This document shows, one piece after another, positions 3,384 through 41,321 of a DNA stretch of 60,951 nucleotides. The notes beneath the pieces were generated by a model, which saw only the letters and a list, made by a program, of their open reading frames with translations, did no database searches and was not told the DNA's origin. The DNA lies in NCBI RefSeq assembly GCF_013001275.1, contig NZ_JABDMV010000063.1:1-60951 (forward strand), written 5' to 3'. The translations under genes and the position numbers were made by a program. Positions within the stretch are counted from its first letter, which is position 1; every line of letters begins with the position of its first letter. Origin of the DNA: Flaviramulus sp. GTDB lineage: Bacteria; Bacteroidota; Bacteroidia; Flavobacteriales; Flavobacteriaceae.

Positions 3384-4427
3384 ATGATAGAAGATAAAAA
3401 TCGACAACGAACACAATTAAGTGATTTAGGAGAATTTGGACTAATAGATCATTTAACAAAAAATTTCAAAATAAAACAATCATCGACAATAAAAGGAATT
3501 GGTGATGATGCGGCTGTACTGAAATTTAAAAATAAAATAGTGGTTACTACAGATTTATTAATCGAAGGTGTGCATTTTGATTTAAGCTATATGCCATTAA
3601 AACATTTGGGTTATAAAGCTGTGGTTGTAAATTTATCTGATGTGTATGCTATGAACGCTACTGCTACACAAATTACAGTATCTGTTGCAGTATCAAACAG
3701 ATTCCCTTTAGAAGCACTTGAAGATTTGTATGCGGGAATTGAAACTGCTGCTAAAATTTATAATATTGATGTTGTTGGCGGCGATACCACTTCCTCAAAT
3801 ACAGGGTTGTTAATTTCTGTAACGGCCATTGGTGAGGTTTCGGATGATAAAGAGGTTTATAGAAATGGAGCAAAACCAAATGATTTACTTGTTGTAACAG
3901 GTGATTTGGGAGCGGCTTATATGGGATTGCAAATACTTGAACGTGAAAAAGAAGTTTATAAAGTTAACCCTAGTAACCAACCAGATTTAGGGCATTATTC
4001 TTATATTATTGAACGTCAATTAAAGCCAGAAGCTCGAAAAGATATTGTTAAATTGTTGAATGATTTGGAAGTAAAACCCACGTCGATGATTGACATTAGT
4101 GACGGATTGTCTTCAGAAATAATTCATTTATGTAAACAAAGCAATGTTGGCTGCGATTTATATGAAGCAAAAATACCTTTAGACCCACAAGTTATTTCTA
4201 CTTGCGAGGAGTTTAATATTGATAGTACAACTGTTGCATTAAATGGCGGGGAAGATTATGAGTTATTATTCACAATTTCTCAAGAGGATTTTCCAAAAGT
4301 TAAGGCAAATCCTAACTTTAGTGTAATCGGGTTTATAAAGGAAAAATCAGAAGGAATTCATTTAGTTACAAGAGCAGAAACAAAAATTCCGATAAAAGCA
4401 CAGGGATGGAAAAATTTTAATGACTAA
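3384..4427 (+). CDS. thiL: Thiamine-monophosphate kinase ThiL
   Basis: 347 residues, normal length. ThiL phosphorylates thiamine monophosphate to thiamine diphosphate with ATP in the cytoplasm, the last step of cofactor synthesis in many bacteria. Motifs: GDDAA at 40-44, TTDLLIEGVHFD at 55-66 (metal and nucleotide binding), NLSDVYAM at 83-90, GGDTTSS at 132-138, and a GGEDYELLF motif in the C-terminal half, as expected for the PurM/ThiL/HypE fold. It is a single-gene unit, divergent from the lipoprotein genes and convergent with the small zinc-ribbon gene, whose 3' end it overlaps by 11 bases. Its relevance to the thiamine uptake genes near 35-41 kb is discussed in the findings. Confidence 0.95.
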   Translation: MIEDKNRQRTQLSDLGEFGLIDHLTKNFKIKQSSTIKGIGDDAAVLKFKNKIVVTTDLLIEGVHFDLSYMPLKHLGYKAVVVNLSDVYAMNATATQITVSVAVSNRFPLEALEDLYAGIETAAKIYNIDVVGGDTTSSNTGLLISVTAIGEVSDDKEVYRNGAKPNDLLVVTGDLGAAYMGLQILEREKEVYKVNPSNQPDLGHYSYIIERQLKPEARKDIVKLLNDLEVKPTSMIDISDGLSSEIIHLCKQSNVGCDLYEAKIPLDPQVISTCEEFNIDSTTVALNGGEDYELLFTISQEDFPKVKANPNFSVIGFIKEKSEGIHLVTRAETKIPIKAQGWKNFND

Positions 4428-4668
4428 AAACAAGTAAGTTCTCAGGCATATTTTTTTTAGCTAATTTTCTTGCACGTCGACGTTCGTGTATACGTTCTAA
4501 TACGTCATTAATTTCTTTAAATTTAGGAGTGAGTTCTGTTAAATTACCATTGCTGTTTGTAGTCAATTCTTTTTTACAATTTTTACATGCATATTCTTTT
4601 ACATGGTAAGTAACATGTCTAGTAATTTGAAAATTGTGACCAAACATTTTGCAGTGAAAATTCTTCAT
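4417..4668 (-). CDS. Small zinc-ribbon-like protein, copy 1 of a tandem pair
   Basis: 83 residues, not a named family I can be sure of. It has C6-x4-H11 in a CKMFGH motif and C28-x2-C31 (CKNC), which together could bind one zinc ion. The rest is basic and helical, with a TPKFKEIN segment and a tail rich in Arg and Lys. The CxxxGH plus CxxC layout resembles short phage-type zinc-ribbon proteins (DUF1660-like), but that link is uncertain. It is closely similar to the next gene upstream, so the pair is a tandem duplication. Confidence 0.6.
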   Translation of the reverse strand: MKNFHCKMFGHNFQITRHVTYHVKEYACKNCKKELTTNSNGNLTELTPKFKEINDVLERIHERRRARKLAKKNMPENLLVFSH

Positions 4669-4735
4669 TTAATTTTAATTCCTAAATTGAACTATTGTCT
4701 TGTGAGGCTTAAAGTATAAAAAAAGAATCAAAAGT

Positions 4736-5017
4736 TTAAACAACTTTAGGGTAATTCGACGAAGCGTTTATTTTATCCTTTAAACGTGCAATTCGTGCAT
4801 TATGTATTCTTCCGAGAATTGCATTTATTTCTTTAAACTTAGGTGTTAACTCGGTTAAACTTCCGTTGCTATTTGTGGTTAATTCTTTCTTACAATGACT
4901 ACAAGTATACTCTTTTACGTGGTAAGTTACTTTTTTAGTTACTTGAAATTTGTGACCAAAAAGATTACAGAATATAGTTGGAATAAACGAAGGTTTGCTG
5001 GCAGTGTTTTTTTTCAT
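4736..5017 (-). CDS. Small zinc-ribbon-like protein, copy 2 of a tandem pair
   Basis: 93 residues. Putative zinc ligands are C17, H22, C39 and C42 (CNLFGH and CSHC). From the GH motif through the LTELTPKFKEIN segment it matches copy 1 at most positions, with an N-terminal extension of about 11 residues and a different C-terminus. Both are on the minus strand, 67 bases apart, and follow the hydrolase gene in the same direction. Cytoplasmic, no signal peptide. Function unknown; nucleic-acid or protein binding is a guess based on the zinc-ribbon layout and high charge. Confidence 0.62.
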   Translation of the reverse strand: MKKNTASKPSFIPTIFCNLFGHKFQVTKKVTYHVKEYTCSHCKKELTTNSNGSLTELTPKFKEINAILGRIHNARIARLKDKINASSNYPKVV

Positions 5018-34223: not shown

Positions 34224-34850
34224 ATGCCACTATATAAAACCATTACACCAAATTCACAAACTACTGTTAAAATTTGGAAGATTTCGGAGTCTAAAGCCGA
34301 TTTATTTAAAAACGTTACGCTTAAACCCGAAAGTTTAGAGCGTGTTATGGGCATGAAAAGTGAATTACATCAACGTGGTTTTTTAAGTGTTCGCCATTTA
34401 TTGGCGGAATTCGGATATAATGATTTTGACTTATATTATGATGAAAACGGTAAACCTCATTTAGATGATGGTAAACAAATATCAATTACACATTCATTCA
34501 ATTTTTCGGCATTAATTATTAGTGATCGTGTTGTTGGAATTGATATTGAAAAGCAACGTGATAAAATTACTATAATAGCTCATAAATTTATAGATTATGA
34601 GTTCGATTATTTAAATAAATACGAATCAGATTACATAAAAAAACTTACAACAATTTGGTGTGTAAAAGAGTCATTATACAAGCTTTTTGCAACACCAGGA
34701 TTGAGTTTTAAAAAGTATTTTTTAGTTATTCCCTTTACTATTGAAGAAGAAGAAACTGTTGCTTGGATTGATTATGAGAATAAAAAACATCGATACAATA
34801 TTCACTTTTTGGAGTTTGAAGGGTTTACATGTGCATATGCCATTGCTTAA
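34224..34850 (+). CDS. 4'-phosphopantetheinyl transferase superfamily protein
   Basis: 208 residues. It transfers phosphopantetheine from CoA to a carrier-protein serine. Motifs: SITHSF at 87-92, GIDIE at 106-110 with metal-binding Asp107 and Glu109, and WCVKESLYK at 145-153. Its length fits the Sfp-like class rather than the shorter AcpS. It is the first gene of a seven-gene run, with its stop directly next to the following ATG. It is not clear whether it serves fatty-acid synthesis or a secondary pathway. Confidence 0.9.
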   Translation: MPLYKTITPNSQTTVKIWKISESKADLFKNVTLKPESLERVMGMKSELHQRGFLSVRHLLAEFGYNDFDLYYDENGKPHLDDGKQISITHSFNFSALIISDRVVGIDIEKQRDKITIIAHKFIDYEFDYLNKYESDYIKKLTTIWCVKESLYKLFATPGLSFKKYFLVIPFTIEEEETVAWIDYENKKHRYNIHFLEFEGFTCAYAIA

Positions 34851-35576
34851 ATGAAACAGGTTTACAATAATTTATTACAAGCTATTTCAGATAACAGAAA
34901 ATTATTGGCTGTTTTAATTGACCCTGATAAATTTCGTATTAGACATACTGGAAGTTTTATTGAAAAAGTAAATGACTCCATAGCAACCCATATTTTTATT
35001 GGCGGAAGTATTGTTGAGAAGGGTGTTACGGAAAAATTAGTATTAGAAATTAAAAATCACACTAAATTACCTGTTGTACTTTTTCCTGGTGACGAGAATC
35101 AAATAACAAATAAAGCTGATGCCATTTTGTTTTTATCACTTATATCTGGAAGAAACCCCGATTATTTAATTGGCAAACAAGTTGAATCTGTTTCAAAAAT
35201 AAAAAATAGTAGTCTTGAGGTAATTTCTACTGGTTATTTACTTATTGAAAGTGGAAAAGAAACAGCAGTAGAAAAAGTAACGAATACAAAACCAATGTTA
35301 AGAAATAATATTGATTTAATCTGTAATACGGTAAAGACGGGCGAATTATTAGGTATGAAACTTATTTATTTAGAAGCAGGAAGTGGTGCAAAGCAACCTT
35401 TAAATCATGAAATTATTTCTTCGGTAAAGAAAGAATTAAAAATCCCATTGATAGTTGGAGGTGGTATAAAAAGTAAATTCGAACTTGAAAATGCATACAA
35501 TTCCGGAGCTGATTTAGTTGTAATTGGTACAGCTTTTGAAAATGATGAATCCTTTTTCAATGAATTAAAGAATTAA
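34851..35576 (+). CDS. Geranylgeranylglyceryl phosphate synthase family protein
   Basis: 241 residues, a TIM barrel with LIDPDK at about 22-27, ISGRNPDYLIG, STGYLLIESGK, YLEAGSGA and VGGGIKS. These match the GGGP synthase/PcrB family, which joins glycerol-1-phosphate to a polyprenyl diphosphate. The long form, group II, occurs in archaea and in Bacteroidota, where its physiological lipid product is not settled. It follows the phosphopantetheinyl transferase gene with no gap. Confidence 0.9.
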   Translation: MKQVYNNLLQAISDNRKLLAVLIDPDKFRIRHTGSFIEKVNDSIATHIFIGGSIVEKGVTEKLVLEIKNHTKLPVVLFPGDENQITNKADAILFLSLISGRNPDYLIGKQVESVSKIKNSSLEVISTGYLLIESGKETAVEKVTNTKPMLRNNIDLICNTVKTGELLGMKLIYLEAGSGAKQPLNHEIISSVKKELKIPLIVGGGIKSKFELENAYNSGADLVVIGTAFENDESFFNELKN

Positions 35577-35579
35577 ATT

Positions 35580-35840
35580 ATGGAAATATCGATAGATTTA
35601 ACCTTGTCGCCACTGCAAGATGATTATGAAAAGCATGTTATTGAATTTATAAAAGCGTTAAGAATTTCTAAGTTTACTGTTTTAGAAAACCCTTTAAGTA
35701 CTCAAATTTTTGGTAACTATGATGAACTAATGCCTTTTTTAAATGAACTTATAAAAAGCTCATTTGAAAATCAAGATATATGCGTATTAACAATGAAAGT
35801 TGTAAAAACAAACCGCAGTAAATATGAACCCCATTTTTGA
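35580..35840 (+). CDS. Thiamine-binding-like protein (YkoF/MTH1187 family)
   Basis: 86 residues, a ferredoxin-like fold. ISIDLTLSPLQDDYEKHVIEFI, then FTVLENPLSTQIFGNYDELM fits the MTH1187/YkoF pattern (short strand, SPL, long helix, then the NP.sT.I.G motif). Some members bind thiamine or a thiazole precursor. No signal peptide. It lies before a PnuC-family gene, overlapping it by 17 bases, and shortly upstream of a TPP-riboswitch-controlled receptor gene, which supports a thiamine link. Confidence 0.7.
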   Translation: MEISIDLTLSPLQDDYEKHVIEFIKALRISKFTVLENPLSTQIFGNYDELMPFLNELIKSSFENQDICVLTMKVVKTNRSKYEPHF

Positions 35841-36456
35841 TTTTTTTTTCGGACAGTACGGTGATTATGAAACAATGGATATTGTTTTAGAAATTGTTGC
35901 TGTTATTTTTGGTTTTTTGTCGGTTTGGTTTTCAAAACAGAATAATGTTTTTGTATTTCCTACTGGTATGATTAGCACTATTATTTTTGTATACTTATTA
36001 CTTAAATGGGGATTGTTGGGTGATATGATGATAAATGCTTATTATTTTATTATGAGTGTTTATGGCTGGTATATCTGGACAAGAAAAGTAGATTCAACTC
36101 ACGTCACGCCTATTTCTAGAACTTCATTCAACGAAAAAAGAATAAGTATAGCCATATTTTTTAGCACCTTATTATTTGTTTATGTAGTTTACAATTCTTT
36201 TGATAAATGGACAAGTTGGGTTGCATATGTAGACACAATAACAACTGCAATATTTTTTGTTGGAATGTGGCTTATGGCGAAGCGAAAAATTGAAAATTGG
36301 ATTTTTTGGATTGTTGGAGACGTAATTTCAGTACCGCTCTATTTTTATAAAGGATTTACATTTACAAGCCTACAATATTTAGGATTTACATTTATTGCCA
36401 TTTTCGGTTATTTAGCATGGAAGAAAAACTTAAACAACAACCTTCAAACTGCGTAA
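35824..36456 (+). CDS. PnuC-family permease, probable thiamine transporter (PnuT)
   Basis: 210 residues with about seven predicted membrane helices. FGFLSVWFSKQNNVFVFPTG, WGLLGDMMINAYYFIMSVYGWYIW and NWIFWIVGDVISVPLYFYKG are PnuC-family motifs (WxxG/NxxY and C-terminal WxxxD). PnuC takes up nicotinamide riboside, while the PnuT branch takes up thiamine. The neighbours, a thiamine-binding-like protein, a TPP riboswitch and a receptor, argue for thiamine, but the NadR-like gene next door is typical of nicotinamide riboside use, so both remain possible. It overlaps the next gene by 40 bases. Confidence 0.85.
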   Translation: MNPIFDFFFGQYGDYETMDIVLEIVAVIFGFLSVWFSKQNNVFVFPTGMISTIIFVYLLLKWGLLGDMMINAYYFIMSVYGWYIWTRKVDSTHVTPISRTSFNEKRISIAIFFSTLLFVYVVYNSFDKWTSWVAYVDTITTAIFFVGMWLMAKRKIENWIFWIVGDVISVPLYFYKGFTFTSLQYLGFTFIAIFGYLAWKKNLNNNLQTA

Positions 36457-36983
36457 AAGTAGTTTTGTTTGGTCCTGAATCTACAGGAAAAACAACATTG
36501 AGTCGTCAATTAGCACGCTACTACAATTCGGTTTGGGTGCCTGAATATGCAAGAGAATATCTTCAAAATAAGTGGAATAACGAACGTAAAACTTGCGAAT
36601 CAAAAGATTTATTGCCTATTGCAAAAGGACAAATGAAACTTGAAAATAAATTAGCAAAAAAGACGGATACCGTTTTAATTTGCGATACAGATTTGCTGGA
36701 AACAAAAGTTTATTCCGAAGCGTATTATTTGGGCATTTGTAATCCTATTCTTGAAAAATATGCATTGGAAAACACCTACGATTTATATTTATTAACATAT
36801 ATTGATACTCCTTGGGAAGCGGATGATTTACGGGATAAACCAGAACATAGACTCGAGATGTTTAATGCGTTCGAAAAAGCATTAAAAGATTATAATAGAC
36901 CTTATATTTTGTTAAAAGGTAATAAAAACGATCGTTTACAATTAGCGGTAAAACACATTGATAAATTATTAAAGAAGAAATAG
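36417..36983 (+). CDS. NadR-like P-loop kinase
   Basis: 188 residues. Walker A is GPESTGKTT at 19-27. WVPEYAREYL, ICDTDLLETKVYSEAY and a C-terminal DDLRDKPEHR lid region match the ribosylnicotinamide kinase domain of NadR. The NMN adenylyltransferase and HTH domains of full NadR are missing. A kinase next to a PnuC/PnuT permease normally traps the imported vitamin by phosphorylation. In this context thiamine or nicotinamide riboside are both candidates (see findings). Strong overlap with the permease gene. Confidence 0.85.
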   Translation: MEEKLKQQPSNCVKVVLFGPESTGKTTLSRQLARYYNSVWVPEYAREYLQNKWNNERKTCESKDLLPIAKGQMKLENKLAKKTDTVLICDTDLLETKVYSEAYYLGICNPILEKYALENTYDLYLLTYIDTPWEADDLRDKPEHRLEMFNAFEKALKDYNRPYILLKGNKNDRLQLAVKHIDKLLKKK

Positions 36984-36985
36984 GA

Positions 36986-38536
36986 ATGTTTGCAGAGAAA
37001 GATATTAAACAAATTGAAAAAAAAGGAATTAGCTTAAAACAAGTTGAAGCTCAAGTCTCTCGTATTATAAATGGGATGTCTTATTCTAATTTAATATCAG
37101 CAGCAACAATTGGCAACGGAATTGAATGTTACACTCTAGAAGAAATAAGTGCTTTAATAAGAAGTTATGAAGCTAAACAAAACGATTTAGAAATTGTAAA
37201 GTTTGTTCCAGCATCTGGTGCGGCTACTAGAATGTTTAAGTTTTTATTTCAATTTTTAAATAATTTCAATCCTGAAAAAGATACTATTGAAAGTTATGCC
37301 GAAAAACAGAATGACAATTTAATATCAACATTTATTTCAAACTTGGAAAAATTCCCGTTTTACGAACAAGTTCTATCCAAAACCAAAACGTTAATTCCAA
37401 ATTTTAATAACTTGAGTAAAAATGAAACATATCTTGAACTAGTAAAAACTTTGCTTAATGAAAACGGATTGAATTATAGTTTTTTACCAAAAGGATTGTT
37501 GCCATTTCATAAATATTCAAACGGGACCGCAACTCCTTTTCAAGAACATCTGTTGGAATCAACAATTTATGCTTCATCAAACGGAAAAGCAAACTTACAT
37601 TTTACGGTTTCAGAAAAGCATCACAGTTATTTTAATGCTGAATTGTATAAAGTTAAGGTTAATTTAGAAAAGCAAACCAATACGATTTTTAATGTTTCTT
37701 ACTCCTACCAAAATGAAAAAACGGAAACGGTGGCATTAACAACAAATAACGAAATTTTCAGAAATGATGATGAATCTATTCTATTTCGGCCAGCGGGACA
37801 TGGTGCCCTGTTAGAGAATCTAAATGAATTAAATAATGATATTGTTTTTATTAAAAACGTTGATAACATTGTAGTAGCTGAACAAAATAAAAAACTGTCA
37901 AAGTATAAGAAAATGATTGGTGGCGTGCTACTAAATGCACAGGAAAAAGCATTTGCGTATTTGCAGGAATTAGATAGAAATACTATTGAAGAAGCTAAAC
38001 TACTAGAAATTGCAGCTTTTATGAGTAGTAGATTGAATGTTGTAATTGATGAAGCCTTTGATGATTTTACGGCAGTTGATAAATACGAGTATTTAAAAAA
38101 TAAATTAGATAGACCAATTCGTGTATGTGGAATGGTAAAAAATGAAGGAGAACCTGGTGGTGGACCTTTTTGGGTAAAAGATGAACATGGTAACATATCG
38201 TTACAAATTGTAGAATTTGCCCAAATTGATATTAAAAATGATGCCCAAGCAGAGATCGTAAAAAACGCAACCCATTTTAATCCAACAGATTTAGTTTGTG
38301 GCGTAAAAAACTATAAAGGCGAAAAGTTTGATTTAATGAATTTTGTTGACTCTGAAGCTGCATTTATAACTATGAAAACGCAAAATGGCATTGACATACA
38401 AGCTCTTGAGCTCCCTGGTTTATGGAATGGAAGTATGGCGCATTGGAATACTATTTTTGTTGAATTACCGGTAGAAACGTTCAACCCTGTTAAAACCGTG
38501 AACGATTTGCTTAAACCTGTACATCAAGTGTCGTGA
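36986..38536 (+). CDS. DUF4301 protein with nucleotidyltransferase-like motifs
   Basis: 516 residues, a conserved DUF4301 family member. At about 74-83 it has VPASGAATRMFK, which recalls the PAxGxGTRM nucleotide loop of sugar nucleotidyltransferases. In the middle FRPAGHGALLENL, then FIKNVDNIV resemble the GHG and VDN motifs of the UDP-sugar pyrophosphorylase (UDPGP) family. Later VKNEGEPGGGPFWV and ALELPGLWNGSMAHWNTIFVELP are well defined but not from a family I recognise. Cytoplasmic. It is in a single operon with the permease and the NadR-like gene, two bases after the latter. Confidence 0.82.
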   Translation: MFAEKDIKQIEKKGISLKQVEAQVSRIINGMSYSNLISAATIGNGIECYTLEEISALIRSYEAKQNDLEIVKFVPASGAATRMFKFLFQFLNNFNPEKDTIESYAEKQNDNLISTFISNLEKFPFYEQVLSKTKTLIPNFNNLSKNETYLELVKTLLNENGLNYSFLPKGLLPFHKYSNGTATPFQEHLLESTIYASSNGKANLHFTVSEKHHSYFNAELYKVKVNLEKQTNTIFNVSYSYQNEKTETVALTTNNEIFRNDDESILFRPAGHGALLENLNELNNDIVFIKNVDNIVVAEQNKKLSKYKKMIGGVLLNAQEKAFAYLQELDRNTIEEAKLLEIAAFMSSRLNVVIDEAFDDFTAVDKYEYLKNKLDRPIRVCGMVKNEGEPGGGPFWVKDEHGNISLQIVEFAQIDIKNDAQAEIVKNATHFNPTDLVCGVKNYKGEKFDLMNFVDSEAAFITMKTQNGIDIQALELPGLWNGSMAHWNTIFVELPVETFNPVKTVNDLLKPVHQVS

Positions 38537-38943
38537 AGTTTAATGCCCGGGCAATATCTCAAGAATTAAATATTAAGGCTGTAAGAAGTTCGGGTGCAGG
38601 AGGGCAGCATGTGAATAAAGTGTCTTCAAAAGTTGAGCTTTCTTTTAATTTACACGAATCGAAATCTTTAAATAATCAGCAAAAAAGACGTATTTATCGA
38701 AAACTAAAACACCGATTTACAAAGGATGGCATTCTAATTTTACAATGTGATGAAAGCAGAAGTCAGCATAAAAACAAACAACTAGCAATAAAGAGATTTA
38801 TTGAATTAATTAGCGTGTCATTAATTGTTCCTAAAAAGCGCATACCTACTAAAATTCCAAAGTCAGTTATTAGAAAGCGTTTAAACAGTAAACGTAACCT
38901 ATCTGAAAAAAAAGCAAATAGAAAAAAACCAGACATTGATTAA
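38533..38943 (+). CDS. arfB: Peptidyl-tRNA hydrolase ArfB (ribosome rescue)
   Basis: 136 residues from a GTG at 38533 whose four-base GTGA overlaps the DUF4301 stop. The GAGGQHVNK motif at 21-29 is the release-factor GGQ loop. The C-terminus is a basic tail (KKANRKKPDID) that reaches into the mRNA channel. ArfB frees stalled ribosomes lacking a stop codon. Seventh and last gene of the operon. Confidence 0.92.
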   Translation: MKFNARAISQELNIKAVRSSGAGGQHVNKVSSKVELSFNLHESKSLNNQQKRRIYRKLKHRFTKDGILILQCDESRSQHKNKQLAIKRFIELISVSLIVPKKRIPTKIPKSVIRKRLNSKRNLSEKKANRKKPDID

Positions 38944-38962
38944 AAAATTCGCTAATAAATAA

Positions 38963-38992
38963 TTGACATTTAATAATTGCTTAGTACATTTG
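38963..38992 (+). promoter_or_regulatory. Promoter of the TPP-riboswitch receptor gene
   Basis: TTG (38963-38965), 19-base spacer, then TACATTTG (38985-38992) match the Bacteroidota -33/-7 pattern. The predicted start near 38997 is just before the riboswitch aptamer. Confidence 0.7.
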
Positions 38993-39000
38993 TAGCGTTC

Positions 39001-39077
39001 TCAAAAAAGGGGTGCCTATTATCGGCTGAGATCATACCCATTGAACCTGGAACAGGTAATGCTGTTTAGGAAATTGA
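39001..39077 (+). promoter_or_regulatory. TPP (thiamine diphosphate) riboswitch
   Basis: The THI-box motifs appear in order: GGGGTGCC (39009-39016), GGCTGAGA (39024-39031), ACCC (39036-39039), GAACCTGG (39043-39050), ACAGGTAAT (39052-39060) and a terminal GGAAA. Short flanking TCAA/TTGA complements close P1. The 108 bases between the aptamer and the ATG hold no obvious terminator, so the expression platform is not clear. It controls the TonB-dependent receptor immediately downstream. Confidence 0.93.
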
Positions 39078-39185
39078 ATTTTTATTGCGAGTTGTATATA
39101 AAGCTTTCGATTTTAATTCTAAAAAATAGTTATTAAAAAGTAAAGAATAATCACCTCTTTTTATTCGATTAGACACGTAATCGTA

Positions 39186-41321
39186 ATGAAAAACATTTTT
39201 ATTTTTTTAACATTTTTAGCGCTATCAAATACTGTAATTGCGCAACAAAATCAAATTACACAAGATTCTACTAAAACCGAAAAACTAGATGAAGTTTTTG
39301 TTAATGCAGTTCGAGTCAACGCAGATTCACCAATAACACATTCTAACATTTCAAAAAAGCAATTAGAGAAACGTAATTTAGGTCAAGATATCCCTGTATT
39401 ATTAAACTATTTACCATCGGTAGTTACAACTAGTGATGCCGGTGCAGGTATTGGTTATACTGGTATTCGTGTTCGTGGTACGGATGCAACTCGTGTAAAT
39501 GTCACAATTAATGGAATCCCTTATAACGATCCAGAAAGTCAAGGCACCTTTTGGGTTAATTTAGGCGATTTTGCTTCGTCAACCGAGAGTTTACAATTAC
39601 AGCGCGGTGTAGGTTCATCCACAAATGGATCCGGGGCTTTTGGGGCAAGTTTAAATGTTTTAACAGATACGTTTTCCGAAGAAGCTTCAGGCGAAATTGC
39701 TAATAGTGCTGGTAGTTATAACACACGTAAACATACTGTAAAGTTAAGTACAGGTTTAATAAATAATCATTTTGAAATCTCAGGACGTTTTTCTAAAATT
39801 GATTCAGATGGCTATATAGATAGAGCGTTTACAGATTTAAAATCATATTTTTTACAAGGAATTTTTAAAGATGAAAACACTTTAATTAAGGCATTAACTT
39901 TTGGCAATAAAGAACGAACCTATCAAGCTTGGTTTGGTTTAACTTCCGAAGAGTTACAAGAAAATCGTCGTCAAAATCCATATACTTATGATAACGAAAC
40001 CGATAATTATTGGCAAGATCATTATCAATTGCATTGGAATGAACGTTTTGATAATAATTGGTCTACTACAATTGGTTTAAACTACACAAAAGGCAAAGGG
40101 TATTTTGAGCAATATAAGACGGAAGAAACTGCTGCAGATTTTAATAATTTAATAGAAGACGATTCTGACGTTATTGTAAGAAGATGGCTGGACAATAATT
40201 TTTACGTAGTCAACGCAAACGTTACTTATAAAAAAGATGCTTTGGAAGTAATTTCGGGAGTTTCATATAATACGTATTCTGGAGATCATTTTGGTGAAGT
40301 AATTTGGGGTAGTAATCTGGCATCAAACACGAAAATTAGAGATAGGTATTACGAAGGAGATGCAACTAAAAACGATTTTAGTATTTTTTCAAAAGCAACT
40401 TTTAAACTTGCAGAAAAAATTACAGGATTTGTTGATTTGCAAGGTCGTTTTGTGAGTTATAAAACAAATGGATTGAATTCAGATAGAGTCGAATTTGTTA
40501 CCGATGCTAATTTTAGTTTTTTCAACCCAAAAATGGGTTTCACTTATAAACATTGCGATTTTAATAGTTTCTATACATCGTATGGACGCGCAAATAGAGA
40601 ACCAAATCGCGATGATTTTAAATCCGGTGTAACCGAAAACGAAACACTGAATGATATTGAATTGGGATGGAGATACAATTCTAAAAAAGTGAGTTTGAAT
40701 ACAAATTTATACTACATGTTTTACCAAAATCAATTAGTATTAACAGGCGAGCTGGACGATGTAGGAAGCCCAATTCGAGCAACTAGTGGAAAAAGTTATA
40801 GGTTGGGGTTGGAAGTTGATGCAACAGTTAAATTTAATAAGACATTCTATACGTCAACAAATGTTGCACTAAGTAGTAATAAAAACAAAGATTTTAATTC
40901 TTCTGTAAATGGAGAAGTAGCTGAATTAGGGAATACAAATATTTCTTTTTCACCTGATATTGTAATAGGTAATGCTCTAAATTTTAATCCTACAAAAAAT
41001 TTGCAACTATCATTTTTAAGTAAGTATGTTGGCGAACAATTTATGGGTAATATAGATTCTGAAGCGTCTAAATTGGACAGCTATTTTATAAATGACCTTA
41101 ATGTTAATTATGAAATGAAGCCAAATAAAATGTTTAGAACAATTGTATTATCAGGATTAGTTAATAATATTTTTAATAAAGAATATGTGTCAAACGGGTA
41201 TTTTGGTTCTTATGATTATCTAGACGCATCAAGTTCTACAGGAACAACTACTGGTTATTATTCGGGGTATTATCCTCAAGCCACGACTAACTTTTTACTA
41301 GGAGTTACATTAAAGTTTTAG
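39186..41321 (+). CDS. TonB-dependent receptor, TPP-riboswitch controlled (thiamine uptake)
   Basis: 711 residues. A signal peptide of about 19 residues is followed by the plug domain (about 30-165: EKLDEVFVNAVRVN as a TonB-box-like start, LLNYLPSVVTTSD, GIRVRGTDATRVNVTINGIPYND) and a barrel that ends GYYPQATTNFLLGVTLKF with C-terminal Phe. Given the riboswitch and the neighbouring PnuC/thiamine-binding genes I infer that it takes up thiamine or a phosphorylated or degraded form of it across the outer membrane. It is the type called OMR1 in comparative work on thiamine regulons in this phylum. Confidence 0.9.
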   Translation: MKNIFIFLTFLALSNTVIAQQNQITQDSTKTEKLDEVFVNAVRVNADSPITHSNISKKQLEKRNLGQDIPVLLNYLPSVVTTSDAGAGIGYTGIRVRGTDATRVNVTINGIPYNDPESQGTFWVNLGDFASSTESLQLQRGVGSSTNGSGAFGASLNVLTDTFSEEASGEIANSAGSYNTRKHTVKLSTGLINNHFEISGRFSKIDSDGYIDRAFTDLKSYFLQGIFKDENTLIKALTFGNKERTYQAWFGLTSEELQENRRQNPYTYDNETDNYWQDHYQLHWNERFDNNWSTTIGLNYTKGKGYFEQYKTEETAADFNNLIEDDSDVIVRRWLDNNFYVVNANVTYKKDALEVISGVSYNTYSGDHFGEVIWGSNLASNTKIRDRYYEGDATKNDFSIFSKATFKLAEKITGFVDLQGRFVSYKTNGLNSDRVEFVTDANFSFFNPKMGFTYKHCDFNSFYTSYGRANREPNRDDFKSGVTENETLNDIELGWRYNSKKVSLNTNLYYMFYQNQLVLTGELDDVGSPIRATSGKSYRLGLEVDATVKFNKTFYTSTNVALSSNKNKDFNSSVNGEVAELGNTNISFSPDIVIGNALNFNPTKNLQLSFLSKYVGEQFMGNIDSEASKLDSYFINDLNVNYEMKPNKMFRTIVLSGLVNNIFNKEYVSNGYFGSYDYLDASSSTGTTTGYYSGYYPQATTNFLLGVTLKF

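What the first reader, a model, noticed from the sequence alone, without database searches (positions are those of the whole stretch)
35580..41321. Probable thiamine uptake and trapping system under TPP control
A TPP riboswitch (39001-39077) leads a TonB-dependent receptor. Just upstream, in one operon, lie a YkoF/MTH1187-like thiamine-binding protein, a PnuC-family permease and a NadR-like kinase. The receptor and permease match the OMR1 and PnuT roles known from thiamine regulons in this phylum. Here the usual thiamine pyrophosphokinase partner is not visible; its place is taken by a NadR-like P-loop kinase. I propose that the NadR-like protein phosphorylates imported thiamine to thiamine monophosphate and that ThiL (3384-4427) then makes thiamine diphosphate. 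The permease-to-kinase coupling and riboswitch are seen; the substrate of the kinase is inference.
Basis: partly seen in the sequence, partly recalled or inferred. Interest (0 to 1): 0.72.

Follow-up and report, generated by a model that had tools for sequence, protein, structure and literature searches.

The report
Vitamin B1 uptake and trapping kinase
A marine-type Flavobacteriaceae genome that appears unable to make vitamin B1 has a permease and a small kinase beside a riboswitch-controlled B1 receptor, and comparison with hundreds of relatives shows the kinase replaces the usual B1 pyrophosphokinase, so it is probably the unrecognised enzyme that traps imported B1.

Summary
The anatomy is real. 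A full-length TPP riboswitch (38998-39089, 46.6 bits, below Rfam's 54.3-bit cut-off) leads a TonB-dependent receptor. Upstream, overlapping genes encode a thiamine-binding-like protein, a PnuC-family permease and an AAA_28 (NadR-kinase-like) kinase without an NMN adenylyltransferase domain.

One correction: the riboswitch starts its own transcription unit. A TAnnTTTG promoter element sits just upstream of 24 of 28 related riboswitches. Only the receptor is under TPP control, not permease and kinase.

The kinase proposal is strongly supported by comparison. The genome has ThiL but no detectable ThiE, thiamine pyrophosphokinase (TPK) or ThiK. Of 82 family genomes lacking ThiE and TPK, 81 carry this kinase; the exception has a contig break beside the locus. 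Across the class, outside one genus, kinase and TPK exclude each other (40 kinase-only, 7 TPK-only, 0 both, 0 neither). The partner permease groups with TPK-linked PnuT, away from NadR-linked PnuC. Kinase-riboswitch linkage recurs in four families.

Best reading: imported thiamine is trapped as thiamine monophosphate, which ThiL converts to TPP. Catalysis is untested. This is a known kind of salvage system with a probably unrecognised kinase.

The parts
34224..34850 (+). 4'-phosphopantetheinyl transferase-like gene, first gene of the upstream operon (context, not part of the thiamine function)
   Evidence: PF01648 E 9.1e-10; conserved neighbour
34851..35576 (+). PcrB/GGGP synthase-like gene (context)
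   Evidence: PF01884 E 1.5e-37; NF003198 above cut-off
35580..35840 (+). small MTH1187/YkoF-like protein, putative thiamine-binding; overlaps the permease gene by 17 nt
   Evidence: PF01910 21.3 bits (below cut-off 24.9); 13 of 14 members of the homologue alignment match PF01910; profile matches UPF0045 structures 2ibo and 2eky
35824..36456 (+). PnuC-family permease, PnuT-type by phylogeny; overlaps the kinase gene by 40 nt
   Evidence: PF04973 E 1.4e-52; groups with TPK-linked PnuT, apart from NadR-linked PnuC; only PF04973 hit in the genome
36417..36983 (+). 188-aa AAA_28 P-loop kinase, proposed thiamine kinase (thiamine + ATP to TMP)
   Evidence: PF13521 E 1e-42, no NMNAT domain; conserved in 115 of 120 family genomes; mutual exclusion with TPK; predicted structure pLDDT 94.7, best PDB matches NadR
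36471..36494 (+). Walker A motif GPESTGKT of the kinase
   Evidence: nearly invariant in the 28-sequence alignment
36804..36854 (+). lid motif D-x-PW-xxDDLRD-x-P-xxR; W133, D136, R139 and R145 (invariant in the kinase clade) are largely shared with NadR, P142 and D137 are not
   Evidence: column comparison of 62 kinases and 10 NadR kinase domains
36986..38536 (+). DUF4301 protein, UDP-sugar pyrophosphorylase-like fold; fused to the kinase in some relatives; probably not needed for the thiamine function
   Evidence: PF14134 E 1.3e-211; Foldseek E 4.5e-11 to UDP-glucose pyrophosphorylase; fusions
38533..38943 (+). ArfB ribosome-rescue hydrolase (context)
   Evidence: NF006718 134.6 bits, above cut-off 100
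38963..38992 (+). putative Bacteroidota-type promoter TTG-N19-TACATTTG in front of the riboswitch
   Evidence: TAnnTTTG element upstream of 24 of 28 related riboswitches; single site
38998..39089 (+). TPP riboswitch aptamer (RF00059) leading the receptor gene
   Evidence: 46.6 bits, E 3.6e-7, full-length match, below gathering score
39186..41321 (+). TonB-dependent receptor, OMR1/OMthi-type by position behind the TPP riboswitch
   Evidence: PF00593 and PF07715 above cut-off; conserved behind the riboswitch across the family
3384..4427 (+). ThiL, thiamine monophosphate kinase (second step of the proposed route)
   Evidence: TIGR01379 311.7 bits, cut-off 184.15, at 3429-4418

Best explanation
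This is a vitamin B1 salvage system. The TonB-dependent receptor, made only when TPP is scarce because of its riboswitch, brings thiamine across the outer membrane. The PnuT-type permease lets it cross the inner membrane. The small NadR-like kinase phosphorylates thiamine to thiamine monophosphate with ATP, which traps it, and ThiL, encoded elsewhere, makes TPP. The kinase takes the place that thiamine pyrophosphokinase holds in the Bacteroides OMthi-pnuT-tnr3 system. Shown by sequence: gene and riboswitch anatomy, absence of detectable ThiE, TPK and ThiK, presence of ThiL, mutual exclusion with TPK, PnuT-type ancestry of the permease, recurring linkage to TPP-riboswitch receptors. Inferred: that the riboswitch turns the receptor off with TPP, that receptor and permease carry thiamine, that the kinase accepts thiamine and makes TMP rather than TPP. 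The permease-kinase operon is probably not TPP-regulated.
For: Pathway gap: the genome has ThiL but no detectable ThiE, TPK or ThiK. Of 82 family genomes lacking ThiE and TPK, 81 have the kinase; in the exception, G079, the contig ends beside DUF4301, where the kinase would be. Mutual exclusion: in 61 genomes of the class every one has kinase or TPK; leaving out one genus, 40 kinase-only, 7 TPK-only, none with both or neither (Fisher p 1.6e-8, not corrected for phylogeny). Replacement in place: G002 (TPK+) has lost ThiBP, PnuC and kinase between conserved neighbours; G100 (TPK+) keeps PnuC and DUF4301 but the kinase between them is gone, with one short remnant-like match; G016 (no kinase) has TPP riboswitch-receptor-PnuC-TPK in one operon. 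Linkage: kinase upstream of a TPP riboswitch-receptor unit in 86 of 115 family genomes and in three other families (G183, G191, G283, G199, G255). In small genomes the unit shrinks to (ThiBP)-PnuC-kinase-[TPP]-receptor. Permease tree: 40 kinase-linked PnuC plus the TPK-linked PnuT form a supported group (99/94) without the NadR-linked PnuC. Kinase tree: stand-alone kinases of the class form one clade (99/94) apart from the NadR domains. Genomes G001, G168, G263, G302 and G318 have the kinase and a separate PnuC-NadR pair.
Against: No biochemistry. The closest solved relatives are NR kinase domains of NadR, and catalytic residues are shared with them, so NR kinase activity is not excluded by sequence. 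Genus g121 has both TPK and kinase (12 of 14 genomes), so the kinase is not a simple substitute there. In several class genomes the kinase is not near a TPP element. The riboswitch does not control permease or kinase here. The genome is 94.6% complete, so single absences could be assembly gaps, but the same absences recur in about 80 relatives.
Confidence: 0.8

Rival explanations
1. Nicotinamide riboside salvage: the permease imports NR and the kinase makes NMN; its place near the TPP riboswitch receptor is synteny only.
For: The kinase's nearest characterised relatives are NadR ribosylnicotinamide kinase domains; PF04973 and TIGR01528 are named for NR/NMN transport.
Against: No NMNAT domain in the kinase and none matched to TIGR01526 in the genome, while true PnuC-NadR loci in the same class carry a fused NMNAT and co-exist with this kinase in the same genomes. 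The permease groups with TPK-linked PnuT. NR salvage does not predict mutual exclusion with TPK.
Confidence: 0.08
2. The kinase is a one-step thiamine pyrophosphokinase analogue (thiamine to TPP), not a TMP-forming kinase.
For: It excludes TPK across the class, as a full functional equivalent would.
Against: Its fold is that of a nucleoside or nucleoside-monophosphate kinase (NadR, thymidylate kinase), enzymes that transfer one phosphoryl group. ThiL is kept in 119 of 120 genomes, including those with no ThiE, which needs a TMP source; but ThiL is also kept with TPK, so this point is weak.
Confidence: 0.05
3. The kinase acts on a thiamine precursor such as hydroxyethylthiazole or HMP.
For: TPP-riboswitch genes often include precursor salvage genes (general knowledge).
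Against: Joining precursors needs ThiE, which is not detected in the window genome and in the 81 family genomes that carry the kinase without ThiE or TPK.
Confidence: 0.03
4. The kinase and DUF4301 form a sugar or other metabolite kinase plus nucleotidyltransferase pair, unrelated to thiamine.
For: DUF4301 has a UDP-sugar pyrophosphorylase-like fold, follows the kinase closely, and is fused to it in several genomes.
Against: They are separable: six streamlined genomes keep PnuC-kinase-[TPP]-receptor without DUF4301, and G100 keeps DUF4301 without the kinase. Outside the family the kinase was found without an adjacent DUF4301 match.
Confidence: 0.04

Closest known systems
Bacteroides thetaiotaomicron OMthi / pnuT-tnr3 thiamine transport operons (PMC5613172)
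   Same: TPP riboswitch, TonB-dependent receptor, PnuC-family inner-membrane permease and a thiamine-phosphorylating partner downstream of the permease.
   Different: The partner is an AAA_28 P-loop kinase, not thiamine pyrophosphokinase; gene order is permease-kinase-[riboswitch]-receptor; only the receptor sits behind the riboswitch; ThiL must finish TPP.
PnuC-NadR nicotinamide riboside uptake and trapping
   Same: PnuC-family facilitator followed by a P-loop kinase of the same superfamily that traps the imported vitamin.
   Different: No NMNAT domain; permease groups with PnuT; linked to a TPP riboswitch receptor; co-exists with true PnuC-NadR pairs in some relatives.
ThiK thiamine kinase of E. 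coli
   Same: Proposed reaction (thiamine to TMP, then ThiL).
   Different: Unrelated family (TIGR02721); no match over cut-off in 120 family genomes and none in the window genome.
Thiamine pyrophosphokinase (PF04263; TPK/Tnr3/ThiN)
   Same: Same physiological slot beside PnuT; mutually exclusive distribution.
   Different: Different fold and reaction; not detected in this genome.

Membership tests
TPP riboswitch (RF00059) | full-length covariance-model match with the conserved core | tested here: met
   model positions 1-105, E 3.6e-7, 46.6 bits
TPP riboswitch (RF00059) | score above Rfam gathering cut-off (54.3 bits) | tested here: not met
   46.6 bits. Many family members in the same place also score below cut-off, so read as a divergent subtype
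TPP riboswitch (RF00059) | binds TPP and changes expression of the receptor | not testable with these tools
   needs in-line probing and a reporter assay
PnuT thiamine permease | PF04973 domain | tested here: met
   E 1.4e-52
PnuT thiamine permease | closer to TPK-linked, TPP-riboswitch-linked PnuT than to NadR-linked PnuC | tested here: met
   clade support 99/94
PnuT thiamine permease | transports thiamine | not testable with these tools
   needs a transport assay
NadR (NMNAT plus ribosylnicotinamide kinase) | AAA_28 kinase domain | tested here: met
   PF13521 E 1e-42
NadR (NMNAT plus ribosylnicotinamide kinase) | NMNAT domain and curated TIGR01526 score 341.15 | tested here: not met
   115.2 bits, only profile positions 164-323 matched; same in the whole genome
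Thiamine pyrophosphokinase | PF04263 catalytic domain | tested here: not met
   kinase passes cut-off only for PF13521; no PF04263 in the genome
OMR1/OMthi thiamine receptor | TonB-dependent receptor directly behind a TPP riboswitch | tested here: met
Thiamine_BP (PF01910) | score above Pfam cut-off | tested here: inconclusive
   21.3 against 24.9 bits; 13 of 14 members of the homologue alignment hit the model, best E 7.6e-9
Thiamine kinase (function) | phosphorylates thiamine to TMP | not testable with these tools
   inferred from pathway gap and TPK exclusion

The most novel reading that the evidence does not exclude
The kinase and its neighbour DUF4301 (UDP-sugar pyrophosphorylase-like fold, fused to the kinase in one genus and several other genomes) form a bifunctional thiamine kinase / nucleotidyltransferase, making TPP or a thiamine nucleotide by a route not yet described, by analogy with NadR's kinase-adenylyltransferase pairing.
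Probability: 0.05. Interest if true: 0.85.

Novelty: new variant of a known kind. Interest (0 to 1): 0.62.

Why it matters
Many Flavobacteriaceae, and much of the class sampled here, have ThiL but no detectable source of its substrate TMP. This kinase family would fill that gap, with one clear enzyme test. It would change a default NadR-like or ATPase annotation, correct B1 pathway reconstructions that call such genomes incomplete, and give a clean case of an NR-kinase relative re-targeted to another vitamin together with its permease. Published metatranscriptomes report marine Bacteroidetes/Flavobacteriales as mainly B1 uptake organisms (omr1, pnuC; PMC12442306, PMC8552899), so the trapping enzyme matters ecologically.

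Tried and rejected
The Rfam scan at the gathering cut-off found nothing; the riboswitch needed the E-value mode. I looked for published assignment of a NadR-like thiamine kinase in Bacteroidota; no search found one, but the library lacks most subscription papers, and two key papers (Gomez-Consarnau 2016 on Flavobacteria and B1; Jaehme 2018 on PnuT) are not held. TPP control of permease and kinase was rejected because the riboswitch lies 3' of them and carries its own promoter element. A hydroxyethylthiazole or HMP kinase role was rejected because ThiE is absent. ThiK was considered and rejected (no match over cut-off). The first regular expression for riboswitch cores in named loci was too strict (5 found); a looser one gave 10, of which 9 had the -7 element. 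The kinase remnant in G100 is one 19-residue match (E 0.002), a hint only.
Full report
OBSERVATION. The window is contig C48 of a 2.68 Mb, 94.6% complete genome; the nearest named relatives of the kinase are Flavobacteriaceae such as Mariniflexile, Flaviramulus and Winogradskyella. The riboswitch is a full-length RF00059 match at 38998-39089, 46.6 bits, E 3.6e-7, below the 54.3-bit cut-off; 111 of 120 family genomes have a TPP element, only 38 above cut-off, so low scores are normal in this family. The upstream genes are tightly packed: the thiamine-binding-like gene overlaps the permease gene by 17 nt, the permease overlaps the kinase by 40 nt, and DUF4301 starts 3 nt after the kinase stop.

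CORRECTION. The riboswitch does not lead the permease-kinase operon. It lies downstream of it, and a TTG-N19-TACATTTG promoter-like site ends 5 nt before it. In 24 of 28 related elements a TAnnTTTG motif stands just upstream of the riboswitch; TAnnTTTG occurs in about 3.5% of random 45-nt stretches of related loci, and 9 of 10 riboswitch cores found in named genomes have it. That TTG/TAnnTTTG is the Bacteroidota promoter type is general knowledge, not tested here. In all 86 linked family genomes the kinase is upstream of the riboswitch on the same strand.

PATHWAY GAP. By whole-genome search the genome has ThiL, one PF04973 permease, one TPP element, and no TPK, ThiE or ThiK. Positive controls rang in the same searches (TPK: Bacteroides among others; ThiE: E. 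coli and others; ThiK: E. coli). Over 120 family genomes, 82 lack both ThiE (hits above about 90 bits) and TPK; 81 of these carry the kinase. The exception, G079, is 81% complete and its contig ends beside DUF4301, just where the kinase would lie. Of the five genomes without the kinase, three have TPK (G002, G016, G100), one has ThiE (G020), one is G079. Without ThiE or TPK, ThiL needs another source of TMP.

MUTUAL EXCLUSION. In a phylum sample of 247 genomes, the 61 from this class all have kinase or TPK. Leaving out one genus (g121), 40 have the kinase only, 7 TPK only, none both, none neither. The p-value (1.6e-8) ignores phylogeny, but the switch to TPK appears several times: G002, G016 and G100 in the family, family f2 in the order, and G136, G306 and f11 elsewhere in the class. 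Genus g121 has TPK in 14 of 14 genomes and the kinase in 12, and where inspected (L264, L266, L268) the kinase is fused to DUF4301. Kinase counts exclude long NadR proteins with a fused NMNAT.

REPLACEMENT IN PLACE. G016 has TPP riboswitch-receptor-PnuC-TPK in one operon, as do G346 and G354, matching the gut Bacteroidetes arrangement of OMthi, pnuT and tnr3 (PMC5613172). G002, with TPK elsewhere, keeps the family locus but lacks the thiamine-binding, permease and kinase genes. G100, with TPK elsewhere, keeps the permease and DUF4301 while the kinase between them is gone, leaving at most a 19-residue remnant-like match.

LINKAGE AND TREES. In streamlined genomes the locus shrinks to (thiamine-binding)-PnuC-kinase-[TPP]-receptor with the other neighbours gone. 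The kinase also precedes a TPP-riboswitch receptor in families f3, f5 and f9. All 80 named loci have the permease upstream. The kinase tree puts stand-alone kinases of the class in one supported clade (99/94), apart from NadR kinase domains (some long branches). The permease tree groups 40 kinase-linked permeases with the three TPK-linked PnuT (99/94), away from the NadR-linked PnuC of this class; a few kinase-linked permeases from f3, f5 and f9 are unresolved. G001, G168, G263, G302 and G318 carry a complete PnuC-NadR pair besides this kinase, so the kinase is not simply their NR kinase.

STRUCTURE. The kinase model (pLDDT 94.7) matches NadR first (TM 0.67-0.84 by query, best E 1.1e-9) and then thymidylate kinases. 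Core residues (Walker A, E43, R46, D90-T91, W133, D136, R139, R145) are largely shared with NadR; lid positions differ, with NadR's G in D-G-x-R replaced (mostly D) and a conserved P142. This fits phosphoryl transfer to a hydroxyl on a different substrate but does not prove it.

MECHANISM. Receptor (TPP-repressed), permease (thiamine transport and facilitated diffusion are reported for PnuT by Jaehme et al. 2018, as cited in PMC7749635), kinase trapping as TMP, ThiL to TPP. Anatomy and distribution are shown; substrate, product and regulation are inferred. A TonB-dependent step outside and phosphorylation inside would make a facilitator one-way.

NOVELTY. The system kind (PnuT plus a thiamine-phosphorylating enzyme plus TPP-riboswitch receptor) is known. 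The kinase family in that role was not found in the held literature, which is not exhaustive; a prior prediction in databases or subscription journals cannot be excluded. I file it as a new variant of a known kind.

Noticed in passing
window 36986-38536; L264, L266, L268, L275, L276: DUF4301 has a predicted UDP-sugar pyrophosphorylase-like fold (pLDDT 91.8; Foldseek E 4.5e-11, TM about 0.45) and is fused in one ORF to the kinase in three inspected genomes of genus g121 and in G314 and G003; its function is unknown.
   Followed up: partly
L117 (G001:C13:92000-99000): A relative has a second locus with TonB-dependent receptor, PnuC and bifunctional NadR (NMNAT plus kinase), apparently a separate nicotinamide riboside uptake system with its own receptor.
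   Followed up: partly
window 38963-38992 and 28 related loci: A TAnnTTTG promoter element sits just upstream of 24 of 28 TPP riboswitches of the family, marking riboswitch-receptor as its own transcription unit.
   Followed up: yes
L094, L095, L096, L108, L109, L110, L115: In many relatives extra genes, including a conserved divergent ORF of about 820 aa and one of about 450 aa, are inserted between the kinase operon and the riboswitch, which explains kinase-riboswitch distances of 5-9 kb.
   Followed up: no
L118, about positions 4603-4979 (G100): Between PnuC and DUF4301 the kinase gene is missing in a TPK-carrying genome, with one 19-residue remnant-like match (58% identity, E 0.002).
   Followed up: partly
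L245, L288, L289, L246, L290: In families f8 and f5 the kinase can occur without an adjacent PnuC (in f5 directly before a receptor gene, with a TPP riboswitch in G183), so permease coupling is common but not universal.
   Followed up: no
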